Assembly: GCF_032911445.1 (NCBI RefSeq) | Contig: NZ_JAWJEJ010000001.1 | Span: forward strand, 3,162,001-3,226,000 | Direction of reading: 5' to 3' | Length of the DNA stretch: 64,000 bases | Source: Sphingomonas sp. HF-S4 | Lineage (GTDB): Bacteria > Pseudomonadota > Alphaproteobacteria > Sphingomonadales > Sphingomonadaceae | Part shown: positions 28,014 through 54,964 of the stretch, piece after piece | How positions within the stretch are numbered: position 1 is the stretch's first letter | Layout: every line of letters begins with the position of its first letter | Position numbers and translations under genes: made by a program | The notes under the pieces: model-generated | Seen by the model: only the letters and a program-made list of their open reading frames with translations | Told to the model about the DNA's origin: nothing | Databases searched by the model: none

Positions 28014-28022
28014 AGCATCGAA

Positions 28023-29506: not shown

Positions 29507-29514
29507 TCCGAACC

Positions 29515-29545
29515 AAGGCGCCCCGCCGACCGGCGGGGCGCCTTT
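29515..29545 (+). terminator. strong hairpin terminator after the first DUF736 gene
   Basis: A 14-bp perfect stem (AAGGCGCCCCGCCG at 29515-29528 with CGGCGGGGCGCCTT at 29531-29544), minimal loop, then TTT. It lies 8 nt after the stop codon. The T-tract is short. Confidence 0.75.
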
Positions 29546-29548
29546 CGC

Positions 29549-30421: not shown

Positions 30422-30542
30422 GGGCGACATAATCGGGGGACCGGGTTCGGCCGCTCCCTTGGCCCCGCCTGCGACCGCCATTGCAGGCCCGTGATTGGAA
30501 CGGGCCCGCCGCGCTTGCCGGGCCATCGCCCGGAGAGCCTCG

Positions 30543-32974: not shown

Positions 32975-33209
32975 CCTGGCTTCGCGCGTCATTGCCCTGG
33001 CGCCTGGGTCCTCCGATCGGGGCGGATCGGCAGGCTTGGGAAGGAAAGAGGCGATGGCGAGATAAAAGCGCCGCCGTCGGTCGGCGGGCAAATGGTTGTG
33101 GCGATTGGCGAATTTGCGCCGTCGCCGTAGGTGCCCTGCCGTCGCTCTCCCGAATTTCCCCAACGATTTCAACACATCCGGCGCTGGCTCCCACCTGCGG
33201 AGCGGGTTG

Positions 33210-34949: not shown

Positions 34950-34959
34950 GAGAGCCCCC

Positions 34960-36933
34960 ATGCAATCCTCCCGGATCCTCTGGGGCCAGGTGACGATCGT
35001 GCTGCTCATCGTGCTCGGCACGGTCTGGGGCGCGACCCAGTGGACGGCCCATGCGCTCGGCTATCAGGCAGCGCTCGGGCCACCCTGGTTCTTCGTGCGC
35101 GACTATCCCCTCTATCCGCCGCCGGCCTTTTTCTGGTGGTGGTTCAGCTACGATGCCTATGCGCCCGAGATCTTCACCCGCGGCGCGTTCATCGCCGCTT
35201 CGGGCGGGATCGCCGCAGTGGTGGTCGCGATCGCCATGTCGGTCTGGCGCGCCCGCGAGTTGAAAGTGGCCGAGACCTATGGATCGGCGCGCTGGGCAAG
35301 CCCGAGTGAAGTCGCTGCCGCGGGGCTGCTCGGGCAGGACGGCGTCGTGCTCGGCGAGTTGCGGGGCGACTATCTCCGCCACGATGGTCCCGAGCACATC
35401 CTCTGCTTCGCGCCGACCCGCTCGGGTAAGGGCGTCGGCCTGGTCATCCCGTCGCTGCTGACCTGGGCGGGCTCGGCGATTGTCCATGACATCAAAGGCG
35501 AGAACTGGACGCTGACTGCCGGCTTCCGCGCGCGGGTCGGCAAGGTCTTGCTGTTCGACCCGACCAACGCCGCCTCGGCGGCCTACAATCCGCTGCTCGA
35601 GGTGCGCCGCGGCGAATGGGAGGTCCGCGACGTGCAGAATGTCGCCGATGTGCTGGTCGATCCGGAAGGGTCGCTCGAGCGGCGCAACCACTGGGAAAAG
35701 ACCAGCCACGCGCTGCTCGTCGGCGCGATCCTCCACGTCCTCTATGCCGAGCCCGACAAGACGCTCGCGGGAGTCGCCGCCTTCCTCTCCGATCCGCGGC
35801 GCCCGATCGAGGCAACCCTGGCGGCGATGATGTCGACCCGGCATCTCGGCGAAGCCGGCGTCCATCCGGTCGTCGCCTCGGCCGCGCGCGAGCTGCTCAA
35901 CAAATCGGAGAATGAGCGCTCCGGCGTGCTGTCGACCGCCATGTCCTTTCTGGGGCTCTACCGCGATCCGGTAGTGGCCAAGGTGACGAGCGCGTCGAGC
36001 TGGGGGATCGCCGACCTGGTCGATGCCGAGGAACCGGTCACCTTGTACCTCGTCGTGCCGCCGTCGGACATCAGCCGGACCAAGCCGCTAATCCGGTTGC
36101 TACTCAATCAGATCGGCCGGCGGCTGACCGAGGAACTGCGTCCCGCTGCCAGGCGGCACCGGGTGCTGCTGATGCTCGACGAATTTCCTGCGCTTGGCCG
36201 TCTCGACTTCTTCGAGTCCGCGCTGGCCTTCATGGCCGGCTACGGTCTCAAGGCCTTCCTCATCGCCCAATCGCTCAACCAGATCGAGAAGGCCTACGGC
36301 GCCAACAATGCGATCCTCGACAATTGCCATGTGCGCGTGAGCTTCGCGACCAATGACGAGCGCACCGCCAAGCGTATCTCCGACGCGCTCGGCACCGCGA
36401 CCGAGATGCGCGCGATGAAGAACTATGCCGGACATCGCCTCTCGCCATGGCTCGGGCACCTGATGGTATCGCGCACCGAAACCGCTCGCGCGCTGCTCAC
36501 GCCGGGCGAGATCATGCAGTTGCCGCCCGACGACGAGATCGTGATGATCGCCGGCGTGCATCCGATCCGCGCACGAAAGGTCCGCTATTATCGCGATCGG
36601 CGCCTTGCCTCGCGCATCCAGGATCCGCCGAAGGACATGCCCGCATCGGAGCCGCGCGCGAATGACTGGACGAACCTGCCGATACCAGCCCGGTCCCACG
36701 CGCCAGTTGGTGGCGTCGACGAAGACGGCGATCCGGCAAATGGCGGCATCCGCCGCGAACCCGAACTGCCGGAAGAGCAGGAGATCGTCGCGCGCCCCCC
36801 GCCGCCGGCTGGGGAGTTCGAGTTTGACGATGGCTCAAGCGACGATGCCGCCGCTGCCCGGCGTCTGCAGGATCGGATGCGGGGCAACGCGCGACAGGCG
36901 TCGCTCGACCCCGGCGACGGGATCGTGCTGTGA
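34960..36933 (+). CDS. traG: TraG/VirD4 type IV coupling protein
   Basis: 657 residues. Two N-terminal membrane helices (ILWGQVTIVLLIVLGTVWG and GAFIAASGGIAAVVVAIAMS), the Walker A motif APTRSGKGVGLVIPS, Walker B LLMLDEFPALGRL, and the RIADEL-like ERTAKRISDALGTATEM block. It is the ATPase that recruits the relaxase-DNA complex to the channel. AGGAG precedes the ATG. A 100-residue acidic/Pro-rich tail completes it. It overlaps the next gene. Confidence 0.96.
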   Translation: MQSSRILWGQVTIVLLIVLGTVWGATQWTAHALGYQAALGPPWFFVRDYPLYPPPAFFWWWFSYDAYAPEIFTRGAFIAASGGIAAVVVAIAMSVWRARELKVAETYGSARWASPSEVAAAGLLGQDGVVLGELRGDYLRHDGPEHILCFAPTRSGKGVGLVIPSLLTWAGSAIVHDIKGENWTLTAGFRARVGKVLLFDPTNAASAAYNPLLEVRRGEWEVRDVQNVADVLVDPEGSLERRNHWEKTSHALLVGAILHVLYAEPDKTLAGVAAFLSDPRRPIEATLAAMMSTRHLGEAGVHPVVASAARELLNKSENERSGVLSTAMSFLGLYRDPVVAKVTSASSWGIADLVDAEEPVTLYLVVPPSDISRTKPLIRLLLNQIGRRLTEELRPAARRHRVLLMLDEFPALGRLDFFESALAFMAGYGLKAFLIAQSLNQIEKAYGANNAILDNCHVRVSFATNDERTAKRISDALGTATEMRAMKNYAGHRLSPWLGHLMVSRTETARALLTPGEIMQLPPDDEIVMIAGVHPIRARKVRYYRDRRLASRIQDPPKDMPASEPRANDWTNLPIPARSHAPVGGVDEDGDPANGGIRREPELPEEQEIVARPPPPAGEFEFDDGSSDDAAAARRLQDRMRGNARQASLDPGDGIVL

Positions 36934-37364
36934 CCGGCCTGCGCATCAAGCACACCTTTCGGCTGCCCCCGGCGCTGTCTTCCGAGTTGGCCGACTATGC
37001 CGCGCGCAAACGTGTCACGCAGGCACTGGTGGTCGAGACCGCACTTGCCTCCTTCCTGTCGGGCGACAGCGCCGAGCATCTCGAGGCCGTGCTGAGCCGG
37101 CGGCTGGACCGGCTCTCGCGCCAGGCGGAAAAGCTCGCCTGGCATGTCGAGCTGACCAACGAGACGCTGGCGCTCTTCATACGCTTCTGGCTGGTCAACA
37201 ATCCGCCGCTACCGGACACCGCGCTTCCGGCGGCACAGGCGATGGGCAAGGAGCGCTGGGAGCGCTTCGTCGAGACGCTCAATCGCCGCATGGAGTTCGG
37301 GCCGAGGCTGAAGAACGAGATCGTAGAAGATGTCGAACCCCCTCCGGGTGAAGGCCGCGACTGA
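36930..37364 (+). CDS. ribbon-helix-helix (CopG-like) transfer protein
   Basis: 144 residues from a GTG that overlaps the traG stop. The N-terminus RIKHTFRLPPALSSELADYAAR is a CopG-like ribbon-helix-helix, followed by a helical region (LSRRLDRLSRQAEKLAWHVE). In Tn4371-like elements a gene of this type lies between traG and trbB and probably helps in relaxosome assembly or regulation. Here trbB is displaced 2.7 kb downstream by cargo. Confidence 0.8.
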   Translation: MTGLRIKHTFRLPPALSSELADYAARKRVTQALVVETALASFLSGDSAEHLEAVLSRRLDRLSRQAEKLAWHVELTNETLALFIRFWLVNNPPLPDTALPAAQAMGKERWERFVETLNRRMEFGPRLKNEIVEDVEPPPGEGRD

Positions 37365-37369
37365 AAAAC

Positions 37370-38740
37370 CTACCGGCGCTTGCTGGCGCCGAGGTCCGTC
37401 ACCGACGCGAGAACAGTGTTCTCCCAGATCGTGTTGCATTGGATCTCGCCGTCCTGCTCGAACCAATGGGTCGCGCCGGGGATGAGGTCGAACGGTATGG
37501 GATTGCTCGCGAGCGGATTGTGAAAGAATTCGAGTTCCTGACACCATGCTTCGCCAAACGGCCAGAGCGCTTCATAGTCTGGGCTGGAGATCGACAAAGC
37601 GAACGGGATCGCGTCGACCGCACCGGGCGTTCGATCGAACAGGATCCCCTGCCGAACCATGTCGAGGCCGGGCGGTTGCCAGCCGGCGAGAAACCCCATC
37701 CGGTTGAACTTGGACAGGGTGGCGGCATTGCTGAACAACACACCCGACAGATGGGCGTTGGCCGGATCGCGAAAGAGGCCTGCCGGAATTCGGTTCTTTC
37801 CTGTCAGATGCGAAATCGACGCGCCTGCGGCACGGCGATCGGCACCTTCGCCTTCCACGTAGGCCTTGAAGCCATACAGATAGGTTGGCAGCGCTTCGCG
37901 GCTCCAGACCATTGAGCCGGACTCGTGGAAGTCCGCGATGGCAATCGCGAATGGCTGGCCCCGTACGTGCGCCATGTGCTCATAGTTGCGCTGGAGCTTC
38001 CCCCTGAGCGTCTTGGCGAAGCGCTCGGCGGTATCGCCCGTCAATCGCTCGTCCCGATCCTCCGGCGCGTGCACCCATGGACCGATGCCACCGGATCGCG
38101 GCTCGGCGGAATTGGCGGTCACGGCCTCGATCCAGCAATTGGCCCCGCCCAGTTCGATCTCGAAGTCCGGGGACACATGGTCCTGCCGCACCCGAATACC
38201 CTGCTCCCGGAAGCACGCCAGCAGGTAGAGCTCGAACAGTCGTGAGGCGAAGTTGTTCGTCTGGAAGTCGCTGACGAAATTCGGGTCCGGGTTTGGCAAC
38301 GCCAGATAGCATTCGCCCACCGCCATCAATGCGGGGAGATGATCCAGCGTGGATGACAGAAGCTCAAATTCAGGCGAGGCGCCGGCCGAACCGATCTCGC
38401 ATAGCGGGCGCCGCCTCCGCTCGCCGGAAGGAAGCGGCTCGGGTGGTTTCCCGATCCGAAAGCTTGTCCGCAGATGGGCCAAGGCCAGGTCCGGGTTTGC
38501 GAAGCCGCCGCGCTCATCGGTCCGCACCCATCGGTGGTCCACACGCCGCCTCAGGGTCAAGGTCGAAAAGGTCCAGGTCGCAGGGTCGATCAGAATCGCG
38601 CCTGCCGCCTCGGATTTCGCCGTCTTGTAGGCATCGTAGATTTCCCGGTCGCCGAAGTTCGGACCGCGCTCGAGCGAGAGCGCGAAGAGATCAAACTGCC
38701 GCGCGTTGATCTGCTTGAGGTCTGCATTCTCGCCAGTCAC
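37370..38740 (-). CDS. hypothetical nuclease-like protein in cargo between traG cluster and trbB
   Basis: 456 residues, no signal peptide. The region FASRLFELYLLACFREQGIRV, then SPDFEIELGGANCWIEAVTAN resembles a PD-(D/E)XK core (Glu170, Asp192, Glu205), but the final Lys is Val207. I do not recognise a named family. It is oppositely oriented to the transfer genes and divergent from a DUF3800 gene. Gene content and lower GC mark it as inserted cargo; defence or regulation is possible. Confidence 0.6.
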   Translation of the reverse strand: MTGENADLKQINARQFDLFALSLERGPNFGDREIYDAYKTAKSEAAGAILIDPATWTFSTLTLRRRVDHRWVRTDERGGFANPDLALAHLRTSFRIGKPPEPLPSGERRRRPLCEIGSAGASPEFELLSSTLDHLPALMAVGECYLALPNPDPNFVSDFQTNNFASRLFELYLLACFREQGIRVRQDHVSPDFEIELGGANCWIEAVTANSAEPRSGGIGPWVHAPEDRDERLTGDTAERFAKTLRGKLQRNYEHMAHVRGQPFAIAIADFHESGSMVWSREALPTYLYGFKAYVEGEGADRRAAGASISHLTGKNRIPAGLFRDPANAHLSGVLFSNAATLSKFNRMGFLAGWQPPGLDMVRQGILFDRTPGAVDAIPFALSISSPDYEALWPFGEAWCQELEFFHNPLASNPIPFDLIPGATHWFEQDGEIQCNTIWENTVLASVTDLGASKRR

Positions 38741-38836
38741 GTCAGATCAGCCTCGCGGCATTCATTCGCATCGTGCCATCTATGGCGGTTCACGGTGGGT
38801 TCTGGCAGTCTATTCGCGCGATTCTCGCGAGGGTTC

Positions 38837-39928
38837 ATGAAGCACTATTTCCTCGACGAGAGCGGCCATGGGGGAGATCTTGCCTCGGCCAACTTGCTCG
38901 ATTTCTCTGGGCAGCCGGTTTTCGCGCTTGGCTGTGTCGGAATCGACGACGAATCCGCCCTCGCTGCCGAACTCGAACGCCTTCGCGAAAAGCACCAGTG
39001 CGGGGCCGGTGAACTCAAATCGAGTTCGCTTGGCGCCAAGCTCCCGGCCTTCGCCTGTGATCTAATGGAATGGCTCGTGGTCCATGAGGCCGCCATCTTT
39101 GTGGAGATTGTTGAGAAGCGCTTCTTCATCGCGATTCACGTCGTCAATAACCTGCTCTGCGGGCGCTACAGTCTGGATGATGTTGACCAGGAGAGCAGGA
39201 GCCTGTTCGCCGAGTTCCTGAGCAGATCCGAGTTCGAACCGATCCTGCTCGGCTATATCGGAGCCTGCCGCTCCGAGGCCCTCGGCGACGTGACGAATCT
39301 CCTGACTCTGCTGTGGGATGCCCTGGATGAGTCGGATGAGGATGTCGCCCGCACTCTGCAGGTGCTCACGATGTATGCACGCGACCATGCCCGGCTCGGG
39401 GACGCCAAAGTCGGCAAATTTCTTCCGATCCCCGACCTGAGCGTCACGGGGAAGAAGGTCTGGATGCTGCCGAACCTCTCGTCCCTGACCAATATCTATG
39501 GCCGCATCAACCAGTCGCGCCGGCAAGGTTTGGACGGGGTCACGCTCGTTCACGACATCCAGCTCCAGTATGACAAGGTGCTGAGCGACGGAAAGGCGAT
39601 GCTGGAGAAGCTTGCGGCTGAGAACGCGATGCCGGTCGTGCCGTTTGCCGACTATCAGCTGCGCGGTAACGTCACGATGAGGTTCGCCTCCTCTGCCGAT
39701 GATAGCTGCCTTCAGGCCGCCGACCTCCTCGCTGGCAGCGCCATGCGGTTTGTCCGCTCAGGCTTTCCGCGACAAAGACGCAGTGATCCGGCGCTGCGCC
39801 AGGCTTTTTTCAAGATATACGAAACCGGCAATCCATTCACCGCGACCGGCATCAATCTCGTCGTCACTGACGCGATCCTCGACCGCCTCCAAATCCCGAA
39901 CATCCCCTCCGCGCCGTTCGTATTCTAA
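38837..39928 (+). CDS. DUF3800 family protein (RNase H-like fold)
   Basis: 363 residues from the ATG at 38837. MKHYFLDESGHGGDL supplies the early acidic residues and SCLQAADLLAGSAMRFV the C-terminal Q-x-ADLLAG motif typical of DUF3800, predicted to have an RNase H-like nuclease fold. DUF3800 genes are common cargo of mobile elements and defence islands. It is divergent from the nuclease-like gene, with a 96-nt shared promoter region. Cargo status is well supported by interruption of the usual order. Confidence 0.8.
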   Translation: MKHYFLDESGHGGDLASANLLDFSGQPVFALGCVGIDDESALAAELERLREKHQCGAGELKSSSLGAKLPAFACDLMEWLVVHEAAIFVEIVEKRFFIAIHVVNNLLCGRYSLDDVDQESRSLFAEFLSRSEFEPILLGYIGACRSEALGDVTNLLTLLWDALDESDEDVARTLQVLTMYARDHARLGDAKVGKFLPIPDLSVTGKKVWMLPNLSSLTNIYGRINQSRRQGLDGVTLVHDIQLQYDKVLSDGKAMLEKLAAENAMPVVPFADYQLRGNVTMRFASSADDSCLQAADLLAGSAMRFVRSGFPRQRRSDPALRQAFFKIYETGNPFTATGINLVVTDAILDRLQIPNIPSAPFVF

Positions 39929-40122
39929 TGCCGCGTGGCCGGGAGTGGTCCGAGTCGCCGGTCAGACGGAACCAATCGGGCTTCCAAGGCCGTTCGGGAA
40001 AGCCTCCGCGAACACGCGATCTACGCTCGGGCTTCTTCTTCTACGCCATGGCTCTACGACGATAAGTATCTGTTGCGCATCCTGATTTTCGCGCCTCCTT
40101 AGTCACCCCTGTCGCCGGTGCA

Positions 40123-41130
40123 GTGCCGCATCGGCCGTCAAACAGGGTGATCCGCGTGGTCGTAACGCCGTCCCGTTCAGAGGCCTCCCGCCGTGGCGCG
40201 AAGATGCTGCGGACCGCGCTCGGGTCCTCGATCGCGGCCTGGCTGGACGATCCCGGAATCGTTGAGATCATGCTCAATCCGGACGGGCGGCTCTGGATCG
40301 ATCGCTTGGGCAGCGGCCTGGCCGACACGGGTATTGGCGTCGCGGCAGCCGACGGCGAACGCATCATCCGCCTCGTCGCGCATCATGTCGGCAGCGAGGT
40401 CCATGCCCGCGCACCGCGCGTCTCTGCCGAACTGCCGGAGACCGGCGAGCGCTTCGAGGGCCTGTTGCCGCCGGTCGTCACCGCCCCCACCTTTGCGATC
40501 CGCAAACCTGCCGTCGCGGTGTTCACGCTGGACGATTACGTCGCAGCGGGCATCATCACGCGCCTGCAGCGCGCGGCGTTGCGCAAGGCGATAGCCGGCC
40601 GCGAGAATATCCTCGTCGCCGGCGGCACCGGCACGGGCAAGACCACCCTCACCAATGCGCTGCTCGCCGAGATCGCCGGGACCAGCGACCGCATCGTGCT
40701 CATCGAGGACACGCGCGAGCTCCAGTGCACCGCGCCCAATCTCGTCGCGATGCGGACCAAGGATGGCGTGGCCACCCTCTCCGACCTCGTCCGCTCCTCG
40801 CTGCGGCTCCGGCCCGACCGCATTCCAATCGGCGAGGTTCGCGGTGCCGAGGCGCTCGATCTGCTCAAGGCCTGGGGCACCGGCCATCCCGGCGGCTTCG
40901 GGACGATCCACGCCGGCACTGCTCTCGGCGCGCTCCGCCGCCTCGAGCAACTGATCCAGGAAGCCGTAACCACCGTGCCCCGGCCGCTGATCGCCGAGAC
41001 CATCGGCCTGATCGCGGTGCTGGTCCGCGACGGCACCGGCCGCCGGCTCGCCGAACTCGCCCGCGTCGAAGGTCTCGATGCCTCCGGCGAATACCGACTC
41101 CACTCCCTCAGCAACGGAGAAATCCAATGA
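40123..41130 (+). CDS. trbB: TrbB, VirB11-type secretion ATPase
   Basis: 335 residues from a GTG at 40123 (a GTG at 40147 is an alternative). Walker A in [19 protein letters not shown], an Asp box ([12 protein letters not shown]), and the His box [16 protein letters not shown] are all present. It is a hexameric cytoplasmic ATPase of the conjugative channel. It begins the trbB-C-D-E-J-K-L-F-G-I operon; its start is followed immediately by trbC with an ATGA overlap. Confidence 0.95.
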
Positions 41131-41456
41131 ACGGCTCGCTTGTCCCCCTCCGCGTCCGCGCGGCAGCCTTCGCAACCTGCGCGATCCTCGCGCTCGCCGC
41201 CGGTCCGGCGCACGCCTCGGGCTCGTCCATGCCCTGGGAGAGCCCGCTCCAGTCGATCCTCGAAAGCATCGAGGGCCCCGTCGCCAAGATCATCGCGGTG
41301 ATCATCATCATCGTCACCGGCCTGACGCTTGCCTTTGGTGAGACCTCGGGCGGCTTCCGCCGGCTCATCCAGATCGTGTTCGGGCTGAGCATCGCCTTTG
41401 CCGCCAGCTCCTTCTTCCTCAGCTTCTTCAGCTTCGGCGGCGGGGCGCTGGTCTGA
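41127..41456 (+). CDS. trbC: TrbC, pilin precursor
   Basis: 109 residues. Signal peptide (cleavage near AHA-S), two hydrophobic segments (IIAVIIIIVTGLTLAF and IVFGLSIAFAASSFFLSFF) separated by a short hydrophilic loop with TSGGFRR. This is the TrbC/VirB2 layout. It is expected to be cut and cyclised by TraF to form the conjugative pilus. Overlaps trbB and trbD. Confidence 0.93.
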   Translation: MNGSLVPLRVRAAAFATCAILALAAGPAHASGSSMPWESPLQSILESIEGPVAKIIAVIIIIVTGLTLAFGETSGGFRRLIQIVFGLSIAFAASSFFLSFFSFGGGALV

Positions 41457-41734
41457 TGGAGACCCTCGATCCCGGTGCGGCCCTTCCGGGCTATTTCGCG
41501 CCCGTCCATCGCGCGCTGACCGAGCAGATCCTGCTCGGCGGCGCTCCCCGTTCGGTCGCGATCGTCAACGGCACGCTCGCCGGAGCGGTCGGGCTCGGCT
41601 TACGGCTCTGGGTGGTCGGGCTGCTCCTCTGGGCGGTCGGCCATGCCGCCGCGGTCTGGGCGGCACGGCGCGACGCACAGTTCCTCGAGGTCGGACGGCG
41701 CCACATGCGCTACCCCGCCTGGCTGCGCGCGTGA
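41456..41734 (+). CDS. trbD: TrbD, VirB3-like inner membrane protein
   Basis: 92 residues. YFAPVHRALTEQILLGGAPRS is the conserved N-terminal block, followed by one or two hydrophobic segments (IVNGTLAGAVGLGLRLWVV, then GLLLWAVGHAAAVW). TrbD works with TrbE in the channel base. The TGATG overlap couples it to trbC. Confidence 0.92.
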   Translation: METLDPGAALPGYFAPVHRALTEQILLGGAPRSVAIVNGTLAGAVGLGLRLWVVGLLLWAVGHAAAVWAARRDAQFLEVGRRHMRYPAWLRA

Positions 41735-41741
41735 GGCCGCG

Positions 41742-44168
41742 ATGATGTCGCTCCGCGAATATCGCCAGCGCGGCGCCGCGCTCGCCGACTTCCTGCCCTA
41801 GGCGGCACTGGTCGCGCCCGGCATCGTCCTCAACAAAGACGGCTCGTTCCAGCGGACCGCCGCAATCCGGGGTCCCGACCTCGATTCGGCGACCCCCGCT
41901 GAACTCGTCGCGACCGCGGGGCGGCTCAACAGCGCACTGCGCCGCCTCGGCTCGGGCTGGGCGATCTTCGTTGAGGCGCAGCGCGTGCCGGCGCACGATT
42001 ATCCCGCGAGCACGTTCCCCGACCCGGCCTCGGCGCTGGTCGACCGCGAGCGCAGCGCGCAGTTCGCCGAGGAAGGCGTGCATTACGAAAGTGCCTATTT
42101 CCTCACGCTGCAATGGATGCCGCCGGCCGAAGACGCCGCGCGCGCCGAAGGCTGGCTCTACGAGGGGCGGTCCCGCTCGGGTGTCGACACGCGCGAGCTG
42201 CTCGCGGGCTTCGCCGACCGCAGCGCGCGCCTCCTCCAGCTGCTCGAAGGGTTCGTGCCCGAGGCACGCTGGCTCGATGATGCCGAGACGCTCACCTATC
42301 TCCATTCGACCGTCTCGACCCGGCGCCAGCGGGTGCGCGTGCCCGAGACGCCGATGCACCTCGACGTGCTTCTGGCGGATCAGCCGCTGGTCGGCGGCCT
42401 CGAGCCGCGCCTTGGAAGCCAGCATTTGCGGACGCTGACGGTGATCGGCTTTCCGAGCGCGACCTTTCCCGGGCTGCTCGACGACCTCAACCGGCTCGCC
42501 TTTCCCTATCGCTGGGTCACCCGCGCGATCATGCTCGACAAGACCGACGCGACAAGGTTGCTCGCGCGCATCCGCCGCCAATGGTTCGCCAAGCGCAAGT
42601 CGATCGCCGCGATCCTCAAGGAGGTGATGACCAACGAGGCCTCGGTGCTCGTCGACAGCGACGCGGCCAACAAGGCCGCCGACGCCGATCTAGCCCTGCA
42701 GGAGCTCGGCAGCGATCTCGTCGGGCAGGCTTATGTGACCGCCACGGTCAGCGTCTGGGACGCCGACCCGGGGATCGCGGCCGAAAAGCTTCGGCTGGTC
42801 GAGAAGGTCATCCAGGGCCGCGACTTCACCGTCATCGCCGAGGGCATGAACGCGGTCGAGGCATGGCTCGGGAGCCTGCCGGGGCATGTCTACGCCAATG
42901 TCCGCCAGCCGCCCATCTCGACGCTTAACCTCGCGCACATGGTGCCGCTATCCGCCGTCTGGGCAGGGCCGGCGCGCGACGAGCATTTCGATGCGCCGCC
43001 GCTCTTCTTCGCGCGCACCGAAGGCTCGACGCCTTTCCGCTTCGCGCTCCATGTCGGCGATGTCGGTCATACGCTAATCGTCGGGCCGACCGGGACCGGC
43101 AAGTCGGTGCTGCTCGCGCTGATGGCGATGCAGTTCCGCCGCTACGAGCATGCGCAGATCTTCGCCTTCGACTTTGGCGGCTCGATCCGCGCCGCTGCGC
43201 TCGCCATGGGCGGCGACTGGCAGGACCTTGGCGCTTCGCGGGAGGACGATGCAGCCGAGGGGGTGCGGCTGCAGCCGCTCGCCCGGATCCACGACCTCGC
43301 CGAGCGAAGCTGGGCGGCCGAATGGCTGGCAGCGATCCTCGCCGCCGAAGGTGTCGTCGTCGATCCCCAGGCCAAGGAGCATCTCTGGGCGGCGCTCGGC
43401 TCGCTGGCGTCGGCACCGGTCGCCGAACGCACCCTGACCGGCCTGTCGGTGCTGCTCCAGTCGCAGCCGCTCAAGCAGGCGCTCGGGCCCTATTGCGTCG
43501 GCGGGCCGCACGGCCAGCTGCTCGACGCCGAGACCGAGCAGCTCGGGCAAGCCCGAGTCCAGGCGTTCGAGACCGAGGGCCTTGTCGGCAGCGCCGCCGC
43601 GCCCGCCGTGCTTTCCTATCTGTTCCACCGCATCGAGGCGCATCTCGACGGCGCGCCGACCCTGATCATCATCGACGAAGGCTGGCTGGTGCTCGATAGT
43701 CCGGCATTCGCCGCCCAGTTGCGCGAATGGCTCAAGACGCTGCGCAAGAAGAATGCGAGCGTGGTGTTCGCCACCCAGAGCCTTGCCGATATCGAGAGCT
43801 CCGCCATTGCCCCGGCAATCGTCGAGAGCTGCCCGACGCGGATCTTCCTCCCCAATGAGCGCGCCTTCGAGCCGCAGATCGCCGCGATCTACCGGCGCTT
43901 CGGGTTGAACGAGCGCCAGATCGAGATCCTCGCGCGGGCGACGCCTAAGCGCGACTATTATTGTCAGTCGCGCCGCGGCAACCGCCTGTTCGATCTGGGA
44001 CTAGGCGAAGTCGCGCTCGCCTTCACGGCGGCCTCGTCGCGCACCGACCAGCGCCGCATCGCAGAACTTGTCGAGGCCCATGGCCGCGCCGGCTTCGCGC
44101 CTGCGTGGCTGCGCGCCCGCGGCCTCGACTGGGCCGCGGATCTTCTCTTCCTCATCAACCAGGAGTGA
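41742..44168 (+). pseudogene. trbE: TrbE/VirB4 secretion ATPase with in-frame amber codon 20
   Basis: The expected start (MMSLREYRQRGAALADFLP, ATG at 41742) is followed by TAG at 41799-41801 where the family usually has Trp; the reading frame continues intact to 44168 (808 codons in total). Downstream motifs are normal: VGPTGTGKSVLLALM (Walker A) and TLIIIDEGWLVLD (Walker B). Translation could restart at the GTG at 41985, giving a 727-residue protein without the N-terminal 81 residues. VirB4 proteins are essential for conjugation, so the element may be transfer-defective unless the stop is read through or is a sequencing error. Gene identity is firm, coding status is not. Confidence 0.8.
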
Positions 44169-44173
44169 CTGTC

Positions 44174-44923
44174 ATGCGTTTATCTCTCCTCCGCCGCCTT
44201 ACGCTTTCCGGCGCTTCGGCCCTGCTGATTGCCTTTGCCGCCGCCCCGGCGCACGCCCAGCTCGGCGGCATCGTCTACGATCCCAGCAACTATTCGCAGA
44301 ATGTGCTGACGGCGGCGCGGACGCTCCAGCAGATCAACAATCAGATCCGCTCGCTGCAGAATGAGGCGGAAGGGCTGATCAACGACGCGAAGAATCTCGC
44401 GGCGCTGCCCTTCTCGTCGCTCGCCGAACTCCAGTCCCAGGTCCGGCAGACCCAGCAGTTGCTGAGCAACGCCCAGCGCATCGCCTATTCGGTCCAGTCG
44501 ATCGACCAGGCGTTCGCTGGCCGCTACCGGGCGGACAATCTGTCGGCGAGTGACAAGGCGCTGATCGCCAATGCCCGCGCCCGCTGGGAAGACACCGTCG
44601 CCGCCTTCGAGGACGCGCTCAAGGTCCAGGCTGGCGTCGTTGGCAATATCGAAGGCTCGCGCAGCGTCATGGACCGGCTGGTCGGCTCGAGCCAGTCGGC
44701 CTCGGGCGCGCTGCAGGCCGCGCAGGCCGGCAATCAGCTGCTCGCGCTCCAGGCGCGCCAGCTGGCCGACCTGACCGCGCTCGTCGCCGCGCAGGGCCGG
44801 GCCCAGTCCTTAGAGGCGGCGCAGCGCGCGGCCGCGCAGGACCAGGCGCGCGAGCAATTGCGCCGATTTCTCGCGCCCGGGGCTGGCTACCGGTCGGCCC
44901 CGGCCAAGATGTTCCACGACTGA
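44174..44923 (+). CDS. trbJ: TrbJ, VirB5-like pilus/channel protein
   Basis: 249 residues with a signal peptide (AHAQ). The mature protein begins LGGIVYDPSNYSQNVLTAAR, then QINNQIRSLQNEAEGLINDA, a helical protein typical of TrbJ. It is periplasmic and probably part of pilus assembly or recipient contact. GTGACTGTC and ATG follow the trbE stop closely. Confidence 0.92.
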   Translation: MRLSLLRRLTLSGASALLIAFAAAPAHAQLGGIVYDPSNYSQNVLTAARTLQQINNQIRSLQNEAEGLINDAKNLAALPFSSLAELQSQVRQTQQLLSNAQRIAYSVQSIDQAFAGRYRADNLSASDKALIANARARWEDTVAAFEDALKVQAGVVGNIEGSRSVMDRLVGSSQSASGALQAAQAGNQLLALQARQLADLTALVAAQGRAQSLEAAQRAAAQDQAREQLRRFLAPGAGYRSAPAKMFHD

Positions 44924-44935
44924 GGCGCGCGGGCG

Positions 44936-45298
44936 ATGAACATCCGGCTCCCGGCGCGCATCGGCGCATTCGCCTGTCTCGGCCTGGCGGTCGCCATGGC
45001 CGCGCTGGCGCTACGCGGATCGCCGCAGCCGACCGAGACCGCACGGTCCCGGCCAGAGACTGTGGCGCCGGCCGATCCGCTCGAAGCCCGTCTGCGGCAA
45101 TGCCAGCAGGCAGGCGAGGCCGCGGGTAACGACCGCGACTGCCTCGCCGCCTGGGCGGAGAACCGCCGGCGCTTCCTCGGGCTCGACCGCGCGCGGCCGG
45201 CCGAGCCCGCCTCATCGCCGCTCGCGAACCAGATCGTCCCATCTTCAATCCCGGCTCCCGACACGGGCCCGGCAGCTGCGCAGCTACAGGAGCATTGA
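44936..45298 (+). CDS. trbK: putative entry exclusion protein TrbK-alt
   Basis: 120 residues, one N-terminal membrane segment (GAFACLGLAVAMAALALRG), then DPLEARLRQCQQAGEAAGND with the Cys/Ala block LAAWAENRRRFLG. This matches TrbK-alt, the small protein between trbJ and trbL in many ICEs; it is proposed to act in entry exclusion. It has no lipobox, unlike RP4 TrbK. Confidence 0.85.
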   Translation: MNIRLPARIGAFACLGLAVAMAALALRGSPQPTETARSRPETVAPADPLEARLRQCQQAGEAAGNDRDCLAAWAENRRRFLGLDRARPAEPASSPLANQIVPSSIPAPDTGPAAAQLQEH

Positions 45299-45300
45299 GC

Positions 45301-46752
45301 ATGGGCGGCACCGGGGTCATCGACCGCTTCCTCGAGGTCTTCACCCGCTACATCGATTCCGGGTTCGGGCTGCTCCATGGCGAGGTCGCGTTCATCGCGA
45401 CGACCTTGATCGTCATCGACGTCACGCTCGCCGCTCTGTTCTGGACGCTCGGCGAGGGCGACGACATCATCGCCCGGCTGATCAAGAAGACGCTCTTCGT
45501 CGGCATCTTCGCCTATATCATCGGCAACTGGAACGCGCTGGCGCGGATCGTCTTCGAGAGCTTCGCCGGCCTCGGGCTGAAGGCCTCGGGCACCGGCTTC
45601 ACGGCCGCCGAGCTGCTCCAGCCCGGGCGCGTCGCACAAGTTGGGCTCGATGCCGGCCGGCCCATACTCGAATCCATCTCGGGCCTGATGGGCTACATCA
45701 GCTTCTTCGAAAACTTCATCCAGATCGTCGTCCTGCTGTTCGCCTGGGTCGTCGTGCTGCTCGCCTTCTTCGTGCTGGCCGTGCAGCTCTTCGTCACGCT
45801 GGTCGAATTCAAGCTGACGGTCCTGTGCGGCTTCGTGCTCATCCCCTTCGGGCTCTTCGGTAAGACCGCCTTCATGGCCGAGCGCGTGCTCGGCCATGTG
45901 GTGTCGTCGGGCATCAAGGTGCTGGTGCTCGCCGTCATCGTCGGCATCGGCTCGACCCTCTTCTCCGAGTTCACCGACGCGGTTGGCAATGCCCAGCCGA
46001 CAATCGAGGATGCCATGGCGATCGTGCTCGGCGCACTGTGCCTGCTGGGTCTCGGAATCTTTGGGCCGGGCATCGCCAGCGGCATCGTATCGGGCGGCCC
46101 GCAGCTGGGAGCCGGCGCCGCGGCCGGCACCGCGCTCGCAGCGGGCAGCGTGGTCGCAGCGGGCGCCGCCGCCGGTGGCGCGGCGCTGAGCGCTGCCGGT
46201 GGCGCTCTCGCCGGCACCGCGCGCACCGTTGGCTCCGCCGCCAGTGCCTATCGCGTCGGTGCCGAGGGCAAATCGGGGCTCGGCGGTGTTGCCGCCGGAC
46301 TCGGCAGCGTCGGGCGCGCCGCGGCAGAGCGTGCCCCATCCCCGCTCCGCGGCAGCTCGAACCAGGCCTCGCCCGGATCCGCAGGCTCGGGTGCCGGTCG
46401 TTCCTCGAGCGGAGCGGCACCTGACCAGACCGCCTCTGCTCCGATTGCGGTCGGCAGCACGGCAGCCGCTGAGCCGCACGCGGATTCAACTCCGGCCGGA
46501 TCCGACATGGGCGACGCTCCCGTCGCGCATCCGAGCCCACAGCACGGCGAGACGTCATCCGCTCAGCCCGACACGTCGCCGGAGCCGGTCGCCGATCCTG
46601 CCAGTGCTGCCGCTGGCGGTCCGCCTGCCTGGGCACGCGCGATGCGCCGCAACCAGGCCATCGTCCACGGCGCCAGCGTCGCAACCCATACGCTGCGCGG
46701 GGGCGACAGCCGCGGACCCGGCGCCTCCGTCAGCATCACCGACAAGGAGTGA
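45301..46752 (+). CDS. trbL: TrbL, VirB6-like polytopic inner membrane protein
   Basis: 483 residues from the ATG at 45301 (AGGAG 8 nt upstream). FLEVFTRYIDSGFGLLHGEV and LIVIDVTLAALFWTLGEGDD, several membrane helices, then a long Ala/Gly/Ser/Pro-rich C-terminal tail (from about residue 280). P-type TrbL forms the channel core. A TTG 6 nt upstream overlapping the trbK stop is the other possible start. Confidence 0.93.
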   Translation: MGGTGVIDRFLEVFTRYIDSGFGLLHGEVAFIATTLIVIDVTLAALFWTLGEGDDIIARLIKKTLFVGIFAYIIGNWNALARIVFESFAGLGLKASGTGFTAAELLQPGRVAQVGLDAGRPILESISGLMGYISFFENFIQIVVLLFAWVVVLLAFFVLAVQLFVTLVEFKLTVLCGFVLIPFGLFGKTAFMAERVLGHVVSSGIKVLVLAVIVGIGSTLFSEFTDAVGNAQPTIEDAMAIVLGALCLLGLGIFGPGIASGIVSGGPQLGAGAAAGTALAAGSVVAAGAAAGGAALSAAGGALAGTARTVGSAASAYRVGAEGKSGLGGVAAGLGSVGRAAAERAPSPLRGSSNQASPGSAGSGAGRSSSGAAPDQTASAPIAVGSTAAAEPHADSTPAGSDMGDAPVAHPSPQHGETSSAQPDTSPEPVADPASAAAGGPPAWARAMRRNQAIVHGASVATHTLRGGDSRGPGASVSITDKE

Positions 46753-46757
46753 CACGC

Positions 46758-47441
46758 ATGTTTCGACGATCGACCGTGCGCTACGGCGCGACCCCCGAGC
46801 CGCAGACGCCCTATCAGCGCGCCGGTCAGGCATGGGACGAGCGCATCGGGTCGGCGCGGGTGCAGGCGCGCAACTGGCGCTTTGCCTGCTTCGGCGCGCT
46901 CGGGCTTTCGACCCTGCTGGCTTCCGGCATCATCTGGCAGGCTTCGCGCGGCACGATCACCCCCTGGGTCGTGCAGGTTGACAAGCTCGGCGAAGCCCAG
47001 GCGGTCGCGCCGGCGGATGCGGCATATCGCCCGAGCGACCCGCAGATCGCGTTCCACCTCGCGCGCTTCATCGAGAATGTCCGCGGCATTCCTGCCGATC
47101 CTGTCGTGCTCCGCCAGAACTGGCTGCGCGGATATGACTTCACGACCGCACGCGGAGCGCTCGCGCTCAACGATTATGCGCGTAACAACGACCCGTTCGC
47201 GCAGGTCGGCAAGCTGCAGGTGGCGATCGACGTGTCGAGCGTGATCCGTGCCTCCGACGACAGCTTCCGCATCGCCTGGACCGAGCGGCGCTACCAGGAC
47301 GGCAGCCTCGCCGCCACCGAGCGCTGGTCCGCGATCGTCACCGTCGCGATCCAGAGCCCGCGCACCCCCGACGCCCTGCGCAAGAACCCGCTCGGCGTGT
47401 TCGTCACCGCTCTCAACTGGTCGAAGGAGCTTTCGCAATGA
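46758..47441 (+). CDS. trbF: TrbF, VirB8-like inner membrane protein
   Basis: 227 residues from the ATG at 46758 (AGGAG 9 nt upstream). N-terminal TPYQRAGQAWDERIGSARVQA, a single membrane helix (ACFGALGLSTLLASGIIWQ), then the NTF2-like periplasmic domain with WVVQVDKLGEAQAV and FRIAWTERRYQDGSLAATER. TrbF scaffolds the channel. It overlaps trbG. Confidence 0.94.
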   Translation: MFRRSTVRYGATPEPQTPYQRAGQAWDERIGSARVQARNWRFACFGALGLSTLLASGIIWQASRGTITPWVVQVDKLGEAQAVAPADAAYRPSDPQIAFHLARFIENVRGIPADPVVLRQNWLRGYDFTTARGALALNDYARNNDPFAQVGKLQVAIDVSSVIRASDDSFRIAWTERRYQDGSLAATERWSAIVTVAIQSPRTPDALRKNPLGVFVTALNWSKELSQ

Positions 47442-48436
47442 CCCGCAAAAGTATGGCGGTCGTGCCGCCCCTCTTCATGCTCGGCCTGCTGCCGCTCGCC
47501 GGCTGTGCGGCCTCGCGCGCGCAGACGCCTCCGCAGGCAGCCGAGGCGTTGGTGCCTGCAATTCCGGAGTCCGAGCAGCCGCGCAAGGTCGAGATCGTCC
47601 GCATCCCCGAACCGCTGCCGCTGCCCGGCCAGCTTAAGCCGATCAGGACCGCCGGCGTGTCAGAGACTGCCGATCCCAAGGCCCGGATCGGCAGCGCCAA
47701 TGACGCCGCCCGCATGCAACCTGCGCGCGACGGCTTCCTCAATGCGATCCAGCAATATCCATGGGCCGAAGGCGCGCTTTACCAGCTCTACACCGCGCCG
47801 GGTCAGGTCACCGACATTGCGCTGCAGGAAGGCGAACAGCTTGTCGGCCCCGTTGCCGCCGGCGACACCGTGCGCTGGATCATGGGTGACACGCTGAGCG
47901 GCTCAGGTCCGGCGCAGCGCGTGCATATCCTGGTTAAGCCGACCCGGCCGGGTCTCTCCACCAACCTGGTCATCAACACCGACCGGCGCACCTATCACCT
48001 CGAACTGCGCTCGACCCCGGACACCTATATGGCCTCGGTCTCCTGGACCTATCCGCAGGATGCGCTGATCGCGCTTGCCGCGCGGAACCGTGAGGCCGCG
48101 GCGCCGCCGCCGGTGCCTGGTGTCAACCTTGAGTCGCTCAACTTTAGCTACCGGATCGATGGCGACCGCACGGCGTGGCGCCCGGTTCGTGCCTTCGACG
48201 ATGGCCGCCAGGTCTTCATCGAGCTCCCGACAAGCATCGGCCAAAGCGAGCTCCCGCCGCTGTTCGTCGCAGGCGCGAAGGGCGCCGGCGAGCTGGTCAA
48301 CTACCGGATGCGCGGCCGTTACCTCATCGTCGATCGGTTGTTCGGAGCGGCCGAGCTGCGGCTGGGTGGCGGCAAGTCGCAGAAGCGTGTGCGCGTGCTG
48401 CGCGAAGGTGCCCTTCCGGGCGAGAGGGCGAAATGA
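47438..48436 (+). CDS. trbG: TrbG, VirB9-like outer-membrane-associated protein
   Basis: 332 residues. Lipoprotein-like signal (LLPLAGCAA) and the CagX/VirB9 domain with GQVTDIALQEGEQLVGPVAAGD, then TYMASVSWTYPQ and a C-terminal GRYLIVDRLFGAAELRLGG. It forms the outer membrane pore with TrbI and a VirB7-like partner. ATGA overlap to trbF and trbI. Confidence 0.94.
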   Translation: MTRKSMAVVPPLFMLGLLPLAGCAASRAQTPPQAAEALVPAIPESEQPRKVEIVRIPEPLPLPGQLKPIRTAGVSETADPKARIGSANDAARMQPARDGFLNAIQQYPWAEGALYQLYTAPGQVTDIALQEGEQLVGPVAAGDTVRWIMGDTLSGSGPAQRVHILVKPTRPGLSTNLVINTDRRTYHLELRSTPDTYMASVSWTYPQDALIALAARNREAAAPPPVPGVNLESLNFSYRIDGDRTAWRPVRAFDDGRQVFIELPTSIGQSELPPLFVAGAKGAGELVNYRMRGRYLIVDRLFGAAELRLGGGKSQKRVRVLREGALPGERAK

Positions 48437-49644
48437 GCGAGCTTCCCCAGGCGCAGCCGATCGGTGCTGCCGCGCTGCGGCTGCGCGGAGACCCGCCCCG
48501 CGTGATGCGGCTCTCGCGCAAGACGCTGGCGGTCGCGGGTTTGGTGGTCACCGCCGGCATTGGCGGGGCGCTGATCTACGCGCTGCAACCAACCGCGCCC
48601 AAGGCACCGAACGAGCTCTACGAGACCGACAACCGGGCGGCCAGCGATGCGCTTGCCGGCGCGCCCAAGGACTATTCGCAGGTGCCCAGGCTCGGGCCAC
48701 CACTTCCGGGCGACCTCGGCAAACCGATCCTCTCGGCCCAGCAGCGCGGCGTCGATGTGCCGCCCCCACCGAACGGCCAGCAAACCCAGCCGGGCGGACC
48801 GCCCGATGAGGCGCAGGCCGCGCGCGATCGCATCCGCCAGGAGCGAGACGCGGCCCGGACCAGCAAAATGTTCATCGGAAGCGAGAGCGCGGCGCCACAG
48901 ACTCCTCCCGGGTCGCCCGCGGCGCTGCCGGCGCAGGGAACGGGCAGCGCGGCCGCGCCGTCGCAAGTGGTCGAGCGCCAAGGGCCGGCGAGCGGTCAGC
49001 CCGCGAAGCGCGATTTCGTGACGGCACGCAACGAGCATCCGGCCGAGAGCAGCCATCGGCTCGTTCCTGCCGCTTCGCCTTACATCGTCCAGGCAGGCAG
49101 CGTGATCCCGGCCGCGCTCATCACCGGCATCCGCTCCGACCTGCCGGGGATTATTACCGCCCAGGTGACGCAGAATGTCTATGACAGCGTGGCCGGCCGG
49201 CATTTGCTGATCCCGCAGGGCAGCCGCCTGATCGGCGAATATGACTCGCAGATCTCATTCGGGCAGAACCGCGTCCTGCTCGCCTGGGATCGGCTCATCC
49301 TGCCCGACGGTCGATCGGTCCAGCTCGACCGGCTGCCCGGCACCGATGCCTCGGGCTATTCGGGTCTGCAGGACCGCGTCGACCAGCATTGGGGCGGACT
49401 GTTCCGCGCCGCCTTGATCTCGACATTGCTCAGCGTCGGAACCGAGGTTGGCAGCGATGACGAGGACTCGCTGGTGCGCGCGCTGCGCGAAGGCACGTCT
49501 GACTCGATCGGCCGCACTGGCCAGGATCTCGTCCGTCGACAGATGAACGTGCAGCCGACATTGACGGTGCGGGCTGGCTTCCAGCTACGCGTGATCGTCA
49601 CCCGCGATCTTGTGCTGGCACCGGGCGAAGGAGGTGCGAAATGA
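48433..49644 (+). CDS. trbI: TrbI, VirB10-like channel protein
   Basis: 403 residues from the ATG at 48433. Cytoplasmic N-terminus, one membrane helix (LAVAGLVVTAGIGGALIYAL), a Pro-rich spacer, and the C-terminal VirB10 domain with YIVQAGSVIPAALITGIRSD, LIPQGSRLIGEYDSQI and LDRLPGTDASGYSGLQDRVD. It spans both membranes and links energy to channel opening. It is the last Trb channel gene. Confidence 0.95.
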   Translation: MSELPQAQPIGAAALRLRGDPPRVMRLSRKTLAVAGLVVTAGIGGALIYALQPTAPKAPNELYETDNRAASDALAGAPKDYSQVPRLGPPLPGDLGKPILSAQQRGVDVPPPPNGQQTQPGGPPDEAQAARDRIRQERDAARTSKMFIGSESAAPQTPPGSPAALPAQGTGSAAAPSQVVERQGPASGQPAKRDFVTARNEHPAESSHRLVPAASPYIVQAGSVIPAALITGIRSDLPGIITAQVTQNVYDSVAGRHLLIPQGSRLIGEYDSQISFGQNRVLLAWDRLILPDGRSVQLDRLPGTDASGYSGLQDRVDQHWGGLFRAALISTLLSVGTEVGSDDEDSLVRALREGTSDSIGRTGQDLVRRQMNVQPTLTVRAGFQLRVIVTRDLVLAPGEGGAK

Positions 49645-49868
49645 CGCTGAAGCTCGGACCGATCGCCGACGACAAGCCGGTGAAGGTCACGCTCGACATA
49701 CCCGCCGATGTCTATCGCGATCTCAGCGCCTATGCTGAAGCCCACGCCCAGGCCACTGGTCAAGCGTCCAGCGGCCCCGCCAAGCTGATCGTGCCGATGC
49801 TTGTCCAGTTCATGGCCACCGACCGCGGCTTCGCCAAAGCAAGAAGACAGCTGGGGGCCGGAGGATGA
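49641..49868 (+). CDS. DUF2274 protein at the end of the trb operon
   Basis: 75 residues. LKLGPIADDKPVKVTLDIPADVYRDL then KLIVPMLVQFMATDRGF is the DUF2274 signature. The N-terminus resembles a ribbon-helix-helix strand-helix. The family occurs almost only directly after trbI in alphaproteobacterial ICEs; role unknown. ATG overlaps the trbI stop. Confidence 0.87.
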   Translation: MTLKLGPIADDKPVKVTLDIPADVYRDLSAYAEAHAQATGQASSGPAKLIVPMLVQFMATDRGFAKARRQLGAGG

Positions 49869-49886
49869 ACTCGGCCCGCTGCCGTT

Positions 49887-50795
49887 CTAGTGCCGAACAG
49901 GGCGCTCGGGCGGTGCCCGGCCATATCGTCTCGCCGCCAGCGCCAGGAAGCGCGCGAGCGCGGGGTTCTCGTTCTCCTCGCGCCAATGGAGGGTCTGGCT
50001 GAGCCGCGTCGGACCGAACGCATCATGGACCTCGCGAAATGCCACGCCCTCGTCTGTCATCGACCCGGCGCCGGCCGTTACCGAGACCCGGTCCCGGGTG
50101 ATGAGGCTGTGCAGATTGTCGCGGCTCACCGCCTGGGCGACGATTCGCGGCGCGTGGCAAGGCCCCGCGAGACGTGCCGCGATCATCGCTGCGATCAGAT
50201 CGCCGGGATCGGCCCGGGTCACGAGGAAGGTCATCTCCCGGAGATCGGTCCAGTATAGTCGGTCGCGCTCGAGCAGCCGGTGCTGGAGGCTCAGGCCCAC
50301 CGCCAGCGGCTCGCTCCACAGGCACAGCGCTTGCCCTCCAGCCCCTTCGCCGGCCACCACCGCCAGATCGAGACGACCCCGGTCCAGGCCATCGAGGAGT
50401 TGATCGCGGCCCGCCTCAATTGCCTCAAGCTCGACATCCGGGGCCTCGCGCCGGAAGTCCTCGATCGTCGCTCGCAGATCGCCGGCCGCCAGGGTGCCGT
50501 GGAAGCCGATGCGCAGCCTGCCACGCTCGCCGCTGGCGAGCGCCATGACATCGGTCGAAAGCATGTCGAGTTCGCCAACGATCGAGCGGGCCCGGGCGAG
50601 GAACTGGATCCCGCTCGGCGTAGGCGCGACACCCTGGGTCGAGCGCGTAAACAGCGGGACCCCGATACGAAGCTCGAGATGGCGGACGCGCTTGCTCAGC
50701 GTCGACTGCTTCACGCGAAACTGCTCGGCCGCACGGCTGAAGCTGCCGCTATCGGCCGCCGCCAGCGCATAGCGCAGGAGGTGGACCTCGATCAT
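49887..50795 (-). CDS. LysR-family transcriptional regulator at the trb end
   Basis: 302 residues from the ATG at 50795; the frame extends upstream without family similarity. HTH at the N-terminus (YALAAADSGSFSRAAEQF, then KQSTLSKRVRHLELRIGVPLF), and an effector domain with LRIGFHGTLAAGDLR and TFLVTRADPGDLIAAMI. It converges on the trb operon. In Tn4371-like elements a LysR gene sits here and may regulate transfer; the ligand is unknown. Confidence 0.92.
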   Translation of the reverse strand: MIEVHLLRYALAAADSGSFSRAAEQFRVKQSTLSKRVRHLELRIGVPLFTRSTQGVAPTPSGIQFLARARSIVGELDMLSTDVMALASGERGRLRIGFHGTLAAGDLRATIEDFRREAPDVELEAIEAGRDQLLDGLDRGRLDLAVVAGEGAGGQALCLWSEPLAVGLSLQHRLLERDRLYWTDLREMTFLVTRADPGDLIAAMIAARLAGPCHAPRIVAQAVSRDNLHSLITRDRVSVTAGAGSMTDEGVAFREVHDAFGPTRLSQTLHWREENENPALARFLALAARRYGRAPPERPVRH

Positions 50796-50888
50796 GGCGC
50801 ATCCCTGTTCCGTCTTGCCCCGGCATCGGGGGGTGCTGTCGGTCAAGCGTGACGGCGAGTCGAAGCGCTGACAATTCCAAGAAATGGT

Positions 50889-50935
50889 GGAGTCGCAGGG
50901 TCTTCGGAGGCGTGAGGGTCCCGTGGCGACTCCAG
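50889..50935. repeat. 9-bp inverted repeat upstream of the LysR gene
   Basis: TGGAGTCGC (50889-50897) is the exact inverse of GCGACTCCA (50927-50935), with a 29-nt spacer. It lies between the ICE-type LysR gene and the metal-resistance genes. It may be an operator, an rho-independent hairpin without T-tract, or a mark of the element's boundary. Confidence 0.4.
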
Positions 50936-50944
50936 TCGCTTCGC

Positions 50945-51169
50945 TCAGTCGCTCCCTGGGTACACGCGCCACGGCCGAAGGCGCGAGGTTAGCCTAAGCC
51001 CCAACACCTGGGCGCGCCCCCGCACCGCATCGACCGTCCGCCCCAAGGCCCGGGCGATATCGGGCGTCTGCTGTTTCGCCGCTATCCCAGCCCGCAGCGA
51101 AGCATCGTCCTCGGCAGACCACGCCCGGGACGGCCTGCGTTGCGTTGGCTTGCCCTGCTCATCCGGCAT
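50945..51169 (-). CDS. small SANT/Myb-like protein
   Basis: 74 residues from the ATG at 51169 (an upstream start at 51190 overlaps the CDF gene more). WSAEDDASLRAGIAAKQQTP, then DIARALGRTVDAVRGRAQVLGL is a Myb/SANT-like HTH of the type found in small proteins of sphingomonads. Role unknown; it overlaps the end of the czcD-like gene and could be in the same transcript. Confidence 0.6.
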   Translation of the reverse strand: MPDEQGKPTQRRPSRAWSAEDDASLRAGIAAKQQTPDIARALGRTVDAVRGRAQVLGLRLTSRLRPWRVYPGSD

Positions 51170-54961: not shown

Positions 54962-54964
54962 GGA

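What the first reader, a model, noticed from the sequence alone, without database searches (positions are those of the whole stretch)
41742..44168. trbE carries an in-frame amber stop at codon 20
The frame reads MMSLREYRQRGAALADFLP, then TAG at 41799-41801, then continues intact to 44168 with both Walker motifs. The family usually has Trp here, so a single TGG to TAG change explains it. All other trb genes look intact. If real, the element should be transfer-defective unless a suppressor tRNA, readthrough or restart at the GTG at 41985 rescues it. If it is a sequencing error, the element may be active.
Basis: partly seen in the sequence, partly recalled or inferred. Interest (0 to 1): 0.7.

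Follow-up and report, generated by a model that had tools for sequence, protein, structure and literature searches.

The report
Fresh stop codon silencing conjugation ATPase
A mobile metal-resistance element in a Sphingomonas-type bacterium carries a very recent stop codon near the start of its only copy of a DNA-transfer motor gene, so this copy is probably stranded in its host; this is an ordinary kind of decay, though a near-identical intact copy in another species dates it unusually well.

Summary
trbE starts at ATG 41742 behind a ribosome site and meets TAG at 41799-41801 (codon 20); the rest is open to 44168 and matches TrbE. The stop is specific to this copy: 109 of 109 fetched relatives have a tryptophan codon there and none has a stop in codons 1-81. 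Genome G016, another species of the same genus, carries the same element with trbE open; over 2,770 bases the two differ at one base, the one making the stop. A 37-kb tract shows 17 substitutions, no indels and no motif that I could see, which argues against a systematic sequencing error but cannot exclude one. Rescue looks unlikely: no UAG-reading tRNA among 47 found, no second VirB4/TrbE match in the genome, and the GTG 41985 restart would drop 81 residues, 35 of them invariant in 35 relatives. Best reading: a real, young nonsense mutation leaving an ICE that is probably transfer-defective. TrbE truncation is already described in IncP plasmids, including as resistance to pilus-dependent phage (PMC13222520). 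Among the 150 TrbE places listed for this genus, only ours has an internal stop (list cut).

The parts
41742..44168 (+). trbE (VirB4-type conjugation ATPase), interrupted at codon 20
41799..41801 (+). in-frame TAG, codon 20 of trbE; Trp codon in 109 of 109 relatives
41733..41736 (+). GAGG, likely ribosome-binding site of trbE (5 nt before ATG 41742)
41985..44168 (+). possible restart ORF (GTG, 727 aa), lacking TrbE residues 1-81
33096..34949 (+). relaxase gene (RlxS-like)
   Evidence: 566.6 bits, below that model's cut-off of 850
34960..36933 (+). traG, coupling protein
40123..41130 (+). trbB
40725..41456 (+). ORF whose second part is trbC (pilin)
41465..41734 (+). trbD (VirB3-like); start codon not fixed
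43961..44923 (+). ORF holding trbJ (family match from residue 84)
44936..45298 (+). trbK
45295..46752 (+). trbL
46749..47441 (+). trbF
47438..48436 (+). trbG
48175..49644 (+). ORF holding trbI (match under the models' cut-offs)
51755..57408 (-). czcA, czcB, czcC-type heavy-metal efflux genes (cargo)
18950..56200 (.). tract almost identical to the copy in genome G016: 17 substitutions, no indels

Best explanation
The stop is a real, recent nonsense mutation in the single trbE of an integrated conjugative element (ICE) of about 90 kb that carries metal-efflux and arsenic genes. Translation starts at the normal ATG and stops after 19 residues, and no other VirB4-type ATPase was found in the genome to replace the product. 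Without TrbE the transfer channel and pilus should not be assembled or powered, so this copy should be unable to transfer itself, or do so very poorly; it can still be inherited with the chromosome and keep its cargo. Shown: the stop, its absence in all relatives fetched, the otherwise identical intact copy in another species, the single gene copy, no UAG-reading tRNA among those found. Inferred: that the stop exists in the living cell, and that transfer is lost.
For: One base differs from G016 over 2,770 bases, and it is the stop. At that base 10 of 10 nearer relatives side with G016. 109 of 109 fetched loci carry a Trp codon and have no stop in codons 1-81 (the loci include G016's and some pairs from the same or near-identical genes, so they are not all independent). 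The only VirB4/TrbE match in G000 is this gene. 47 tRNA genes, one tRNA-Trp (CCA), none reading UAG. 17 substitutions and no indels in 37 kb; by my gene model 10 missense, 1 nonsense, 4 synonymous, 2 outside assigned genes, close to the neutral expectation, as for very young changes. Residues 1-81 are about as conserved as the rest: 35 of 81 invariant (43%) against 126 of 319 and 189 of 408. Residues 6-127 of a relative align weakly with TrwK residues 8-129 (9.0 bits, E 3.2 alone); the R388 paper builds the VirB4 N-terminal domain from residues 15-400 and has VirB3 wrapping round it (PMC9259494, passages). In RP4, trbE mutations, mostly predicted to truncate the protein, go with impaired transfer, and the trbE mutants imaged lacked pilus remnants (PMC13222520, abstract and passages).
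Against: No reads could be inspected, so an error at this base is not excluded; the near-neutral mix of differences would also fit scattered base errors. About half of the RP4 clones with trbE mutations kept some transfer (PMC13222520), and an RP4 deletion that took trbB-D and 514 bp of trbE still transferred, less well (PMC10286713). GTG 41985 has a ribosome-site energy (-5.6) equal to that of the true start (-5.7). PF03135 found no match in either genome, so that model was not informative. The tRNA set lacks Ile-GAT and Ala-TGC.
Confidence: 0.72

Rival explanations
1. Sequencing or assembly error: the organism has an intact trbE.
For: One base in one assembly, reads not seen. The set of differences is small (17 in 37 kb) and not visibly under selection, as random base errors would be. 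In G016's copy the site lies in a CCWGG string (read off); that methylated sites of this kind can mislead some base callers is recalled, not from a call.
Against: No indels in 37 kb, whereas long-read errors are mostly indels (recalled). The 17 differences show no common context to the eye. At the two other differences tested, relatives side with our window (9 of 10 and 10 of 10) and not with G016, so these two are not errors here. Of 63 G016 ORFs compared, 10 are not full-length in our copy; besides trbE, five have no Pfam domain and four (ParB_N, YAcAr, ArsR-type HTH, DUF6088) keep that domain in an open frame here.
Confidence: 0.17
2. The stop is real but tolerated: read-through, or restart at GTG 41985, gives enough TrbE for transfer.
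For: GTG 41985 is preceded by GAGG at good spacing; energy -5.6 against -5.7 for the true start. The Walker motifs (label recalled) lie far downstream, about residue 450 and 645 in a relative. TrwK has Tyr at the residue that aligns with Trp 20 (weak alignment), so another aromatic residue might be tolerated.
Against: 17% of the 788 in-frame positions in trbE have an equally good upstream site. The column is start-capable in only 18 of 109 relatives, so it is no conserved internal start. 35 of the 81 lost residues are invariant. No suppressor tRNA was found. The stop is specific to this copy.
Confidence: 0.1
3. Deliberate recoding: TAG read as a sense codon, as programmed regulation of trbE.
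For: Only that the downstream frame is intact.
Against: No fetched relative has TAG there (109 of 109 Trp); no tRNA reading UAG found. TAG ends trbE in 4 of 109 relatives.
Confidence: 0.01

Closest known systems
Truncated TrbE/VirB4 of IncP plasmids (PMC13222520; abstract and passages seen)
   Same: Loss of TrbE by truncation in a trb-type transfer system; the paper counts 24 of 182 truncated natural IncP TrbE proteins.
   Different: Here it is an ICE in a chromosome-sized contig of a Sphingomonas-type host and a nonsense change at codon 20, with a near-identical intact copy known in another species. No phage pressure is shown here.
Tn4371 itself, an ICE reported to lack trbD (PMC2789088, passages seen)
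   Same: A trb-type ICE with one mating-pair gene lost, which the authors suggest may explain why its transfer was not shown.
   Different: There a gene is absent; here trbE is present but interrupted.
IncP-type TrbE (NCBIfam NF010447)
   Same: The downstream 727 residues pass the curated cut-off.
   Different: Translation from the conserved start ends after 19 codons.

Membership tests
TrbE (NF010447, IncP-type VirB4 ATPase) | match above the curated score cut-off | tested here: met
   1310.3 bits against 1020 for the part after GTG 41985
TrbE (NF010447, IncP-type VirB4 ATPase) | uninterrupted reading frame from the conserved start | tested here: not met
   TAG at codon 20
Conjugative element with a trb-type T4SS | relaxase, coupling protein and a trb set | tested here: met
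   RlxS-like (under its cut-off), TraG, TrbB, C, D, E (broken), J, K, L, F, G, I (I under its cut-offs)
Integrative and conjugative element (ICE) | integrase at one end and defined att repeats | tested here: inconclusive
   Tyrosine integrase at L117:958-2169 next to a Methyltransf_4 gene, about 10 kb left of the window; similarity to G016 ends near window coordinate 78.1 kb; no att repeat was resolved
Tn4371 ICE family | integrase over 70% similar to intTn4371 plus similar maintenance and transfer genes (definition in PMC2789088) | not tested
   the reference integrase was not compared; gene content is similar (ParB-like, RlxS-like, TraF-like, TraG, trb)
Suppressed amber gene | tRNA reading UAG in the host | tested here: not met
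   none among 47 tRNA genes found; the set lacks Ile-GAT and Ala-TGC, so not exhaustive

The most novel reading that the evidence does not exclude
The nonsense allele was selected, not merely drifted: loss of TrbE removed the pilus and protected the host from a pilus-dependent phage or from the cost of the pilus, trading horizontal for vertical inheritance of a metal-resistance ICE. It would extend to chromosomal ICEs of sphingomonads what has been shown for RP4 and PRD1.
Probability: 0.1. Interest if true: 0.55.

Novelty: new member of a known kind. Interest (0 to 1): 0.3.

Why it matters
It is a caught-in-the-act case: an ICE shared almost identically, over 37 kb, by two distant species of one genus, intact in one and stopped in the other by one base. 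If confirmed by reads, the pair is a natural near-matched set for asking what TrbE loss does to an ICE's spread, cost and phage sensitivity, and it cautions against counting this copy as mobile on gene content alone. In this genus it looks rare (1 of 150 listed TrbE places, which may understate broken genes), against 24 of 182 truncated in IncP plasmids (PMC13222520).

Tried and rejected
Programmed recoding, suppressor tRNA and a conserved internal start were considered and found unsupported. A shared motif among the 17 differences was looked for by eye only and not seen. att repeats were sought with exact words of 11 or more at both ends and not resolved. PF03135 gave no match in either genome and was dropped as uninformative; TIGR00929 replaced it. 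An AlphaFold model of the relative L003's TrbE came out at mean pLDDT 59 (residues 1-20 under 50) and was not used for any fold search or claim. An exact 30-base pattern round codon 20, either base allowed, had no match in viral contigs. Plasmid records hold only 60-80% identical trbE DNA (42 records); a longer query, traG to trbE, matched 79 records, 78 at 60-80% and one at 80-90%. The literature searches were seen as listings of at most 10 papers each; searches had more hits than were listed. None listed was recognised as a broken-trb sphingomonad ICE. Passages were read of four papers: PMC9259494, PMC2789088, PMC13222520, PMC10286713.

Limits. The survey of internal stops lists the 150 best places; the tail is omitted, at most three candidates a genome were scored, and badly shortened genes would fall in the tail, so 1 of 150 may understate them. 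In the TraG control (list also cut) one listed place has an internal stop (TGA, G111). The gene model behind the 10/1/4 count is mine: three of the 15 coding differences fall in a minus-strand ORF, 19140-20543, that overlaps a plus-strand YAcAr gene at 19263-20186 and may not be a gene; without them it is 8 missense, 1 nonsense, 3 synonymous.

Full report
What is there. The window lies at G000:C1:3162001-3226000 of a 4.44-Mb, three-contig genome. Between traG (34960-36933) and a czc metal-efflux cluster (51755-57408, minus strand) sits a trb operon: trbB, C, D, E, J, K, L, F, G, I (trbI under its models' cut-offs). trbE starts at ATG 41742, seven bases after the trbD stop and five after GAGG. 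Codon 20, at 41799-41801, is TAG; the frame then runs open to TGA at 44168. A profile search of the whole genome reports this place as the only VirB4-type match, with '1 TAG'; a protein search agrees that there is one copy. PF03135 found nothing in either genome, not even the intact copy, and says nothing.

Is it peculiar to this copy? Yes, as far as searched. I had 80 loci from named genomes (the best 80 of 596 relatives) and 29 loci from genomes of the same genus. All 109 have a Trp codon at this column and none has a stop in codons 1-81 (12 on the other strand included). They are not all independent: G016 is among them and some of the 29 repeat genes of the 80. A full-length TrbE search of 295 genomes of the genus found matches in 123; of the 150 places listed, one has an internal stop, ours (list cut). 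The TraG control has one TGA-bearing place among its listed rows.

How old is it? Genome G016, one of the 295, carries the same element. The 2,770 bases from 41399 to 44168 differ at one position, 41800. Over window 18,950-56,200 there are 17 substitutions and no indel, while the parts of the element on both sides differ by several percent. The hosts themselves are far apart: DNA around tRNA genes is 71-82% identical, leaving aside short matches of 95-100% that cover little but the tRNA. So the tract moved between species recently, or was exchanged between two related elements. By my gene model 15 of the 17 differences are coding: 10 missense, 4 synonymous and the nonsense change; three of these lie in a doubtful minus-strand ORF that overlaps a YAcAr gene, and without them it is 8, 3 and 1. 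Random substitution in 16 genes of the tract would give about 26% synonymous (34% for transitions) and 2.6% nonsense; at least one nonsense in 15 has a probability near 0.31. Ten nearer relatives all side with G016 at 41800, so the stop arose in our lineage; at 45060 (9 of 10) and 45471 (10 of 10) they side with our window instead.

Error or mutation? Reads are not available. Against a systematic error: no indels in 37 kb and no common context seen. Of the 63 G016 ORFs compared with our copy, 53 are full without a stop. Of the ten others one is trbE; five have no Pfam domain; four have one (ParB_N, YAcAr, ArsR-type HTH, DUF6088), and each of these domains is present in an open frame of our copy. 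In the other direction 55 of 64 of our ORFs are full in G016. I put the chance of an error at about 0.17.

Can it be rescued? The tRNA search gave 47 genes in G000; ARAGORN on these places names no anticodon reading UAG, and the only tRNA-Trp has CCA. Ile-GAT and Ala-TGC are absent from the set; such tRNAs usually lie in rRNA operons (recalled), so the set is incomplete. The first possible restart is GTG 41985, with a ribosome-site energy of -5.6, as good as the true start, but 17% of in-frame positions do as well. It would delete residues 1-81, of which 35 are invariant among 35 relatives, a share like that of the rest. These residues correspond, by an alignment too weak to stand alone (9.0 bits), to the beginning of the TrwK N-terminal domain, which in the R388 structure makes the VirB4 dimer and is wrapped by VirB3 (PMC9259494, passages). 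My own structure prediction was too poor to use.

What it means. The best-supported reading is a young loss-of-function allele in an integrated conjugative element. The element has an integrase beside a Methyltransf_4 gene about 10 kb left of the window, a ParB-like protein, relaxase, traG and trb genes, czc and arsH metal genes, DarTG, and, right of the window, AbiE-type genes. Its extent, about 90 kb, is that of the similarity to G016. No antibiotic-resistance gene was recognised among the proteins scanned, which are not all ORFs, and no dedicated resistance library was used: the czcA-like protein has multidrug-efflux models far below their cut-offs, and a generic methyltransferase at 59332-60012 has an NpmA match at 23 bits against a cut-off of 60. 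TrbE loss in trb systems is known: in RP4 evolved with phage PRD1, complete resistance went with mutations in trbE, trbI and trbJ, trbE mutations impaired transfer, and 24 of 182 natural IncP TrbE proteins are truncated (PMC13222520). The same paper says about half of its trbE clones kept some transfer, and another reports transfer of an RP4 with part of trbE deleted (PMC10286713), so 'transfer-defective' is likely, not proven.

Verdict. The kind of event is ordinary; the value lies in the nearly isogenic intact copy.

Noticed in passing
window 18950-56200: A 37-kb tract is almost identical (17 substitutions, no indels) to an element in a distant species of the genus while the flanking parts of the element differ by several percent, which suggests recent transfer or recombination between elements.
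   Followed up: partly
window 7410-12703: An ImuB-like gene (IMS and DUF6504 domains) followed by an error-prone DNA polymerase gene (DnaE2-type, name recalled), present in G016's element too at about 93%: a mutagenesis cassette apparently on a mobile element.
   Followed up: no
window 21767-27280: DarT/DarG toxin-antitoxin genes beside a 1003-residue N6-methyltransferase protein with weak type IIG restriction similarity: a small defence cluster inside the identical tract.
   Followed up: partly
L117:148-2169 (about 10-12 kb left of the window): Tyrosine integrase just after a Methyltransf_4 gene (TrmB-like, name recalled), probably the insertion site; att repeats were not resolved.
   Followed up: partly
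L118:12331-14048 (right of the window): AbiEi/AbiEii-type pair near the right end of the element.
   Followed up: no
window 38474-39928: A DUF3800 protein lies between traG and trbB, inside the transfer region.
   Followed up: no
L117:6828-8006 and G016:C2:1832533-1833708: An ECF-sigma-type gene (392 aa here) has one stop in G016's copy: a possible break in the other element.
   Followed up: no
G111:C7:21640-23622: A traG with one internal TGA in another genome of the genus, another possible broken transfer gene.
   Followed up: no
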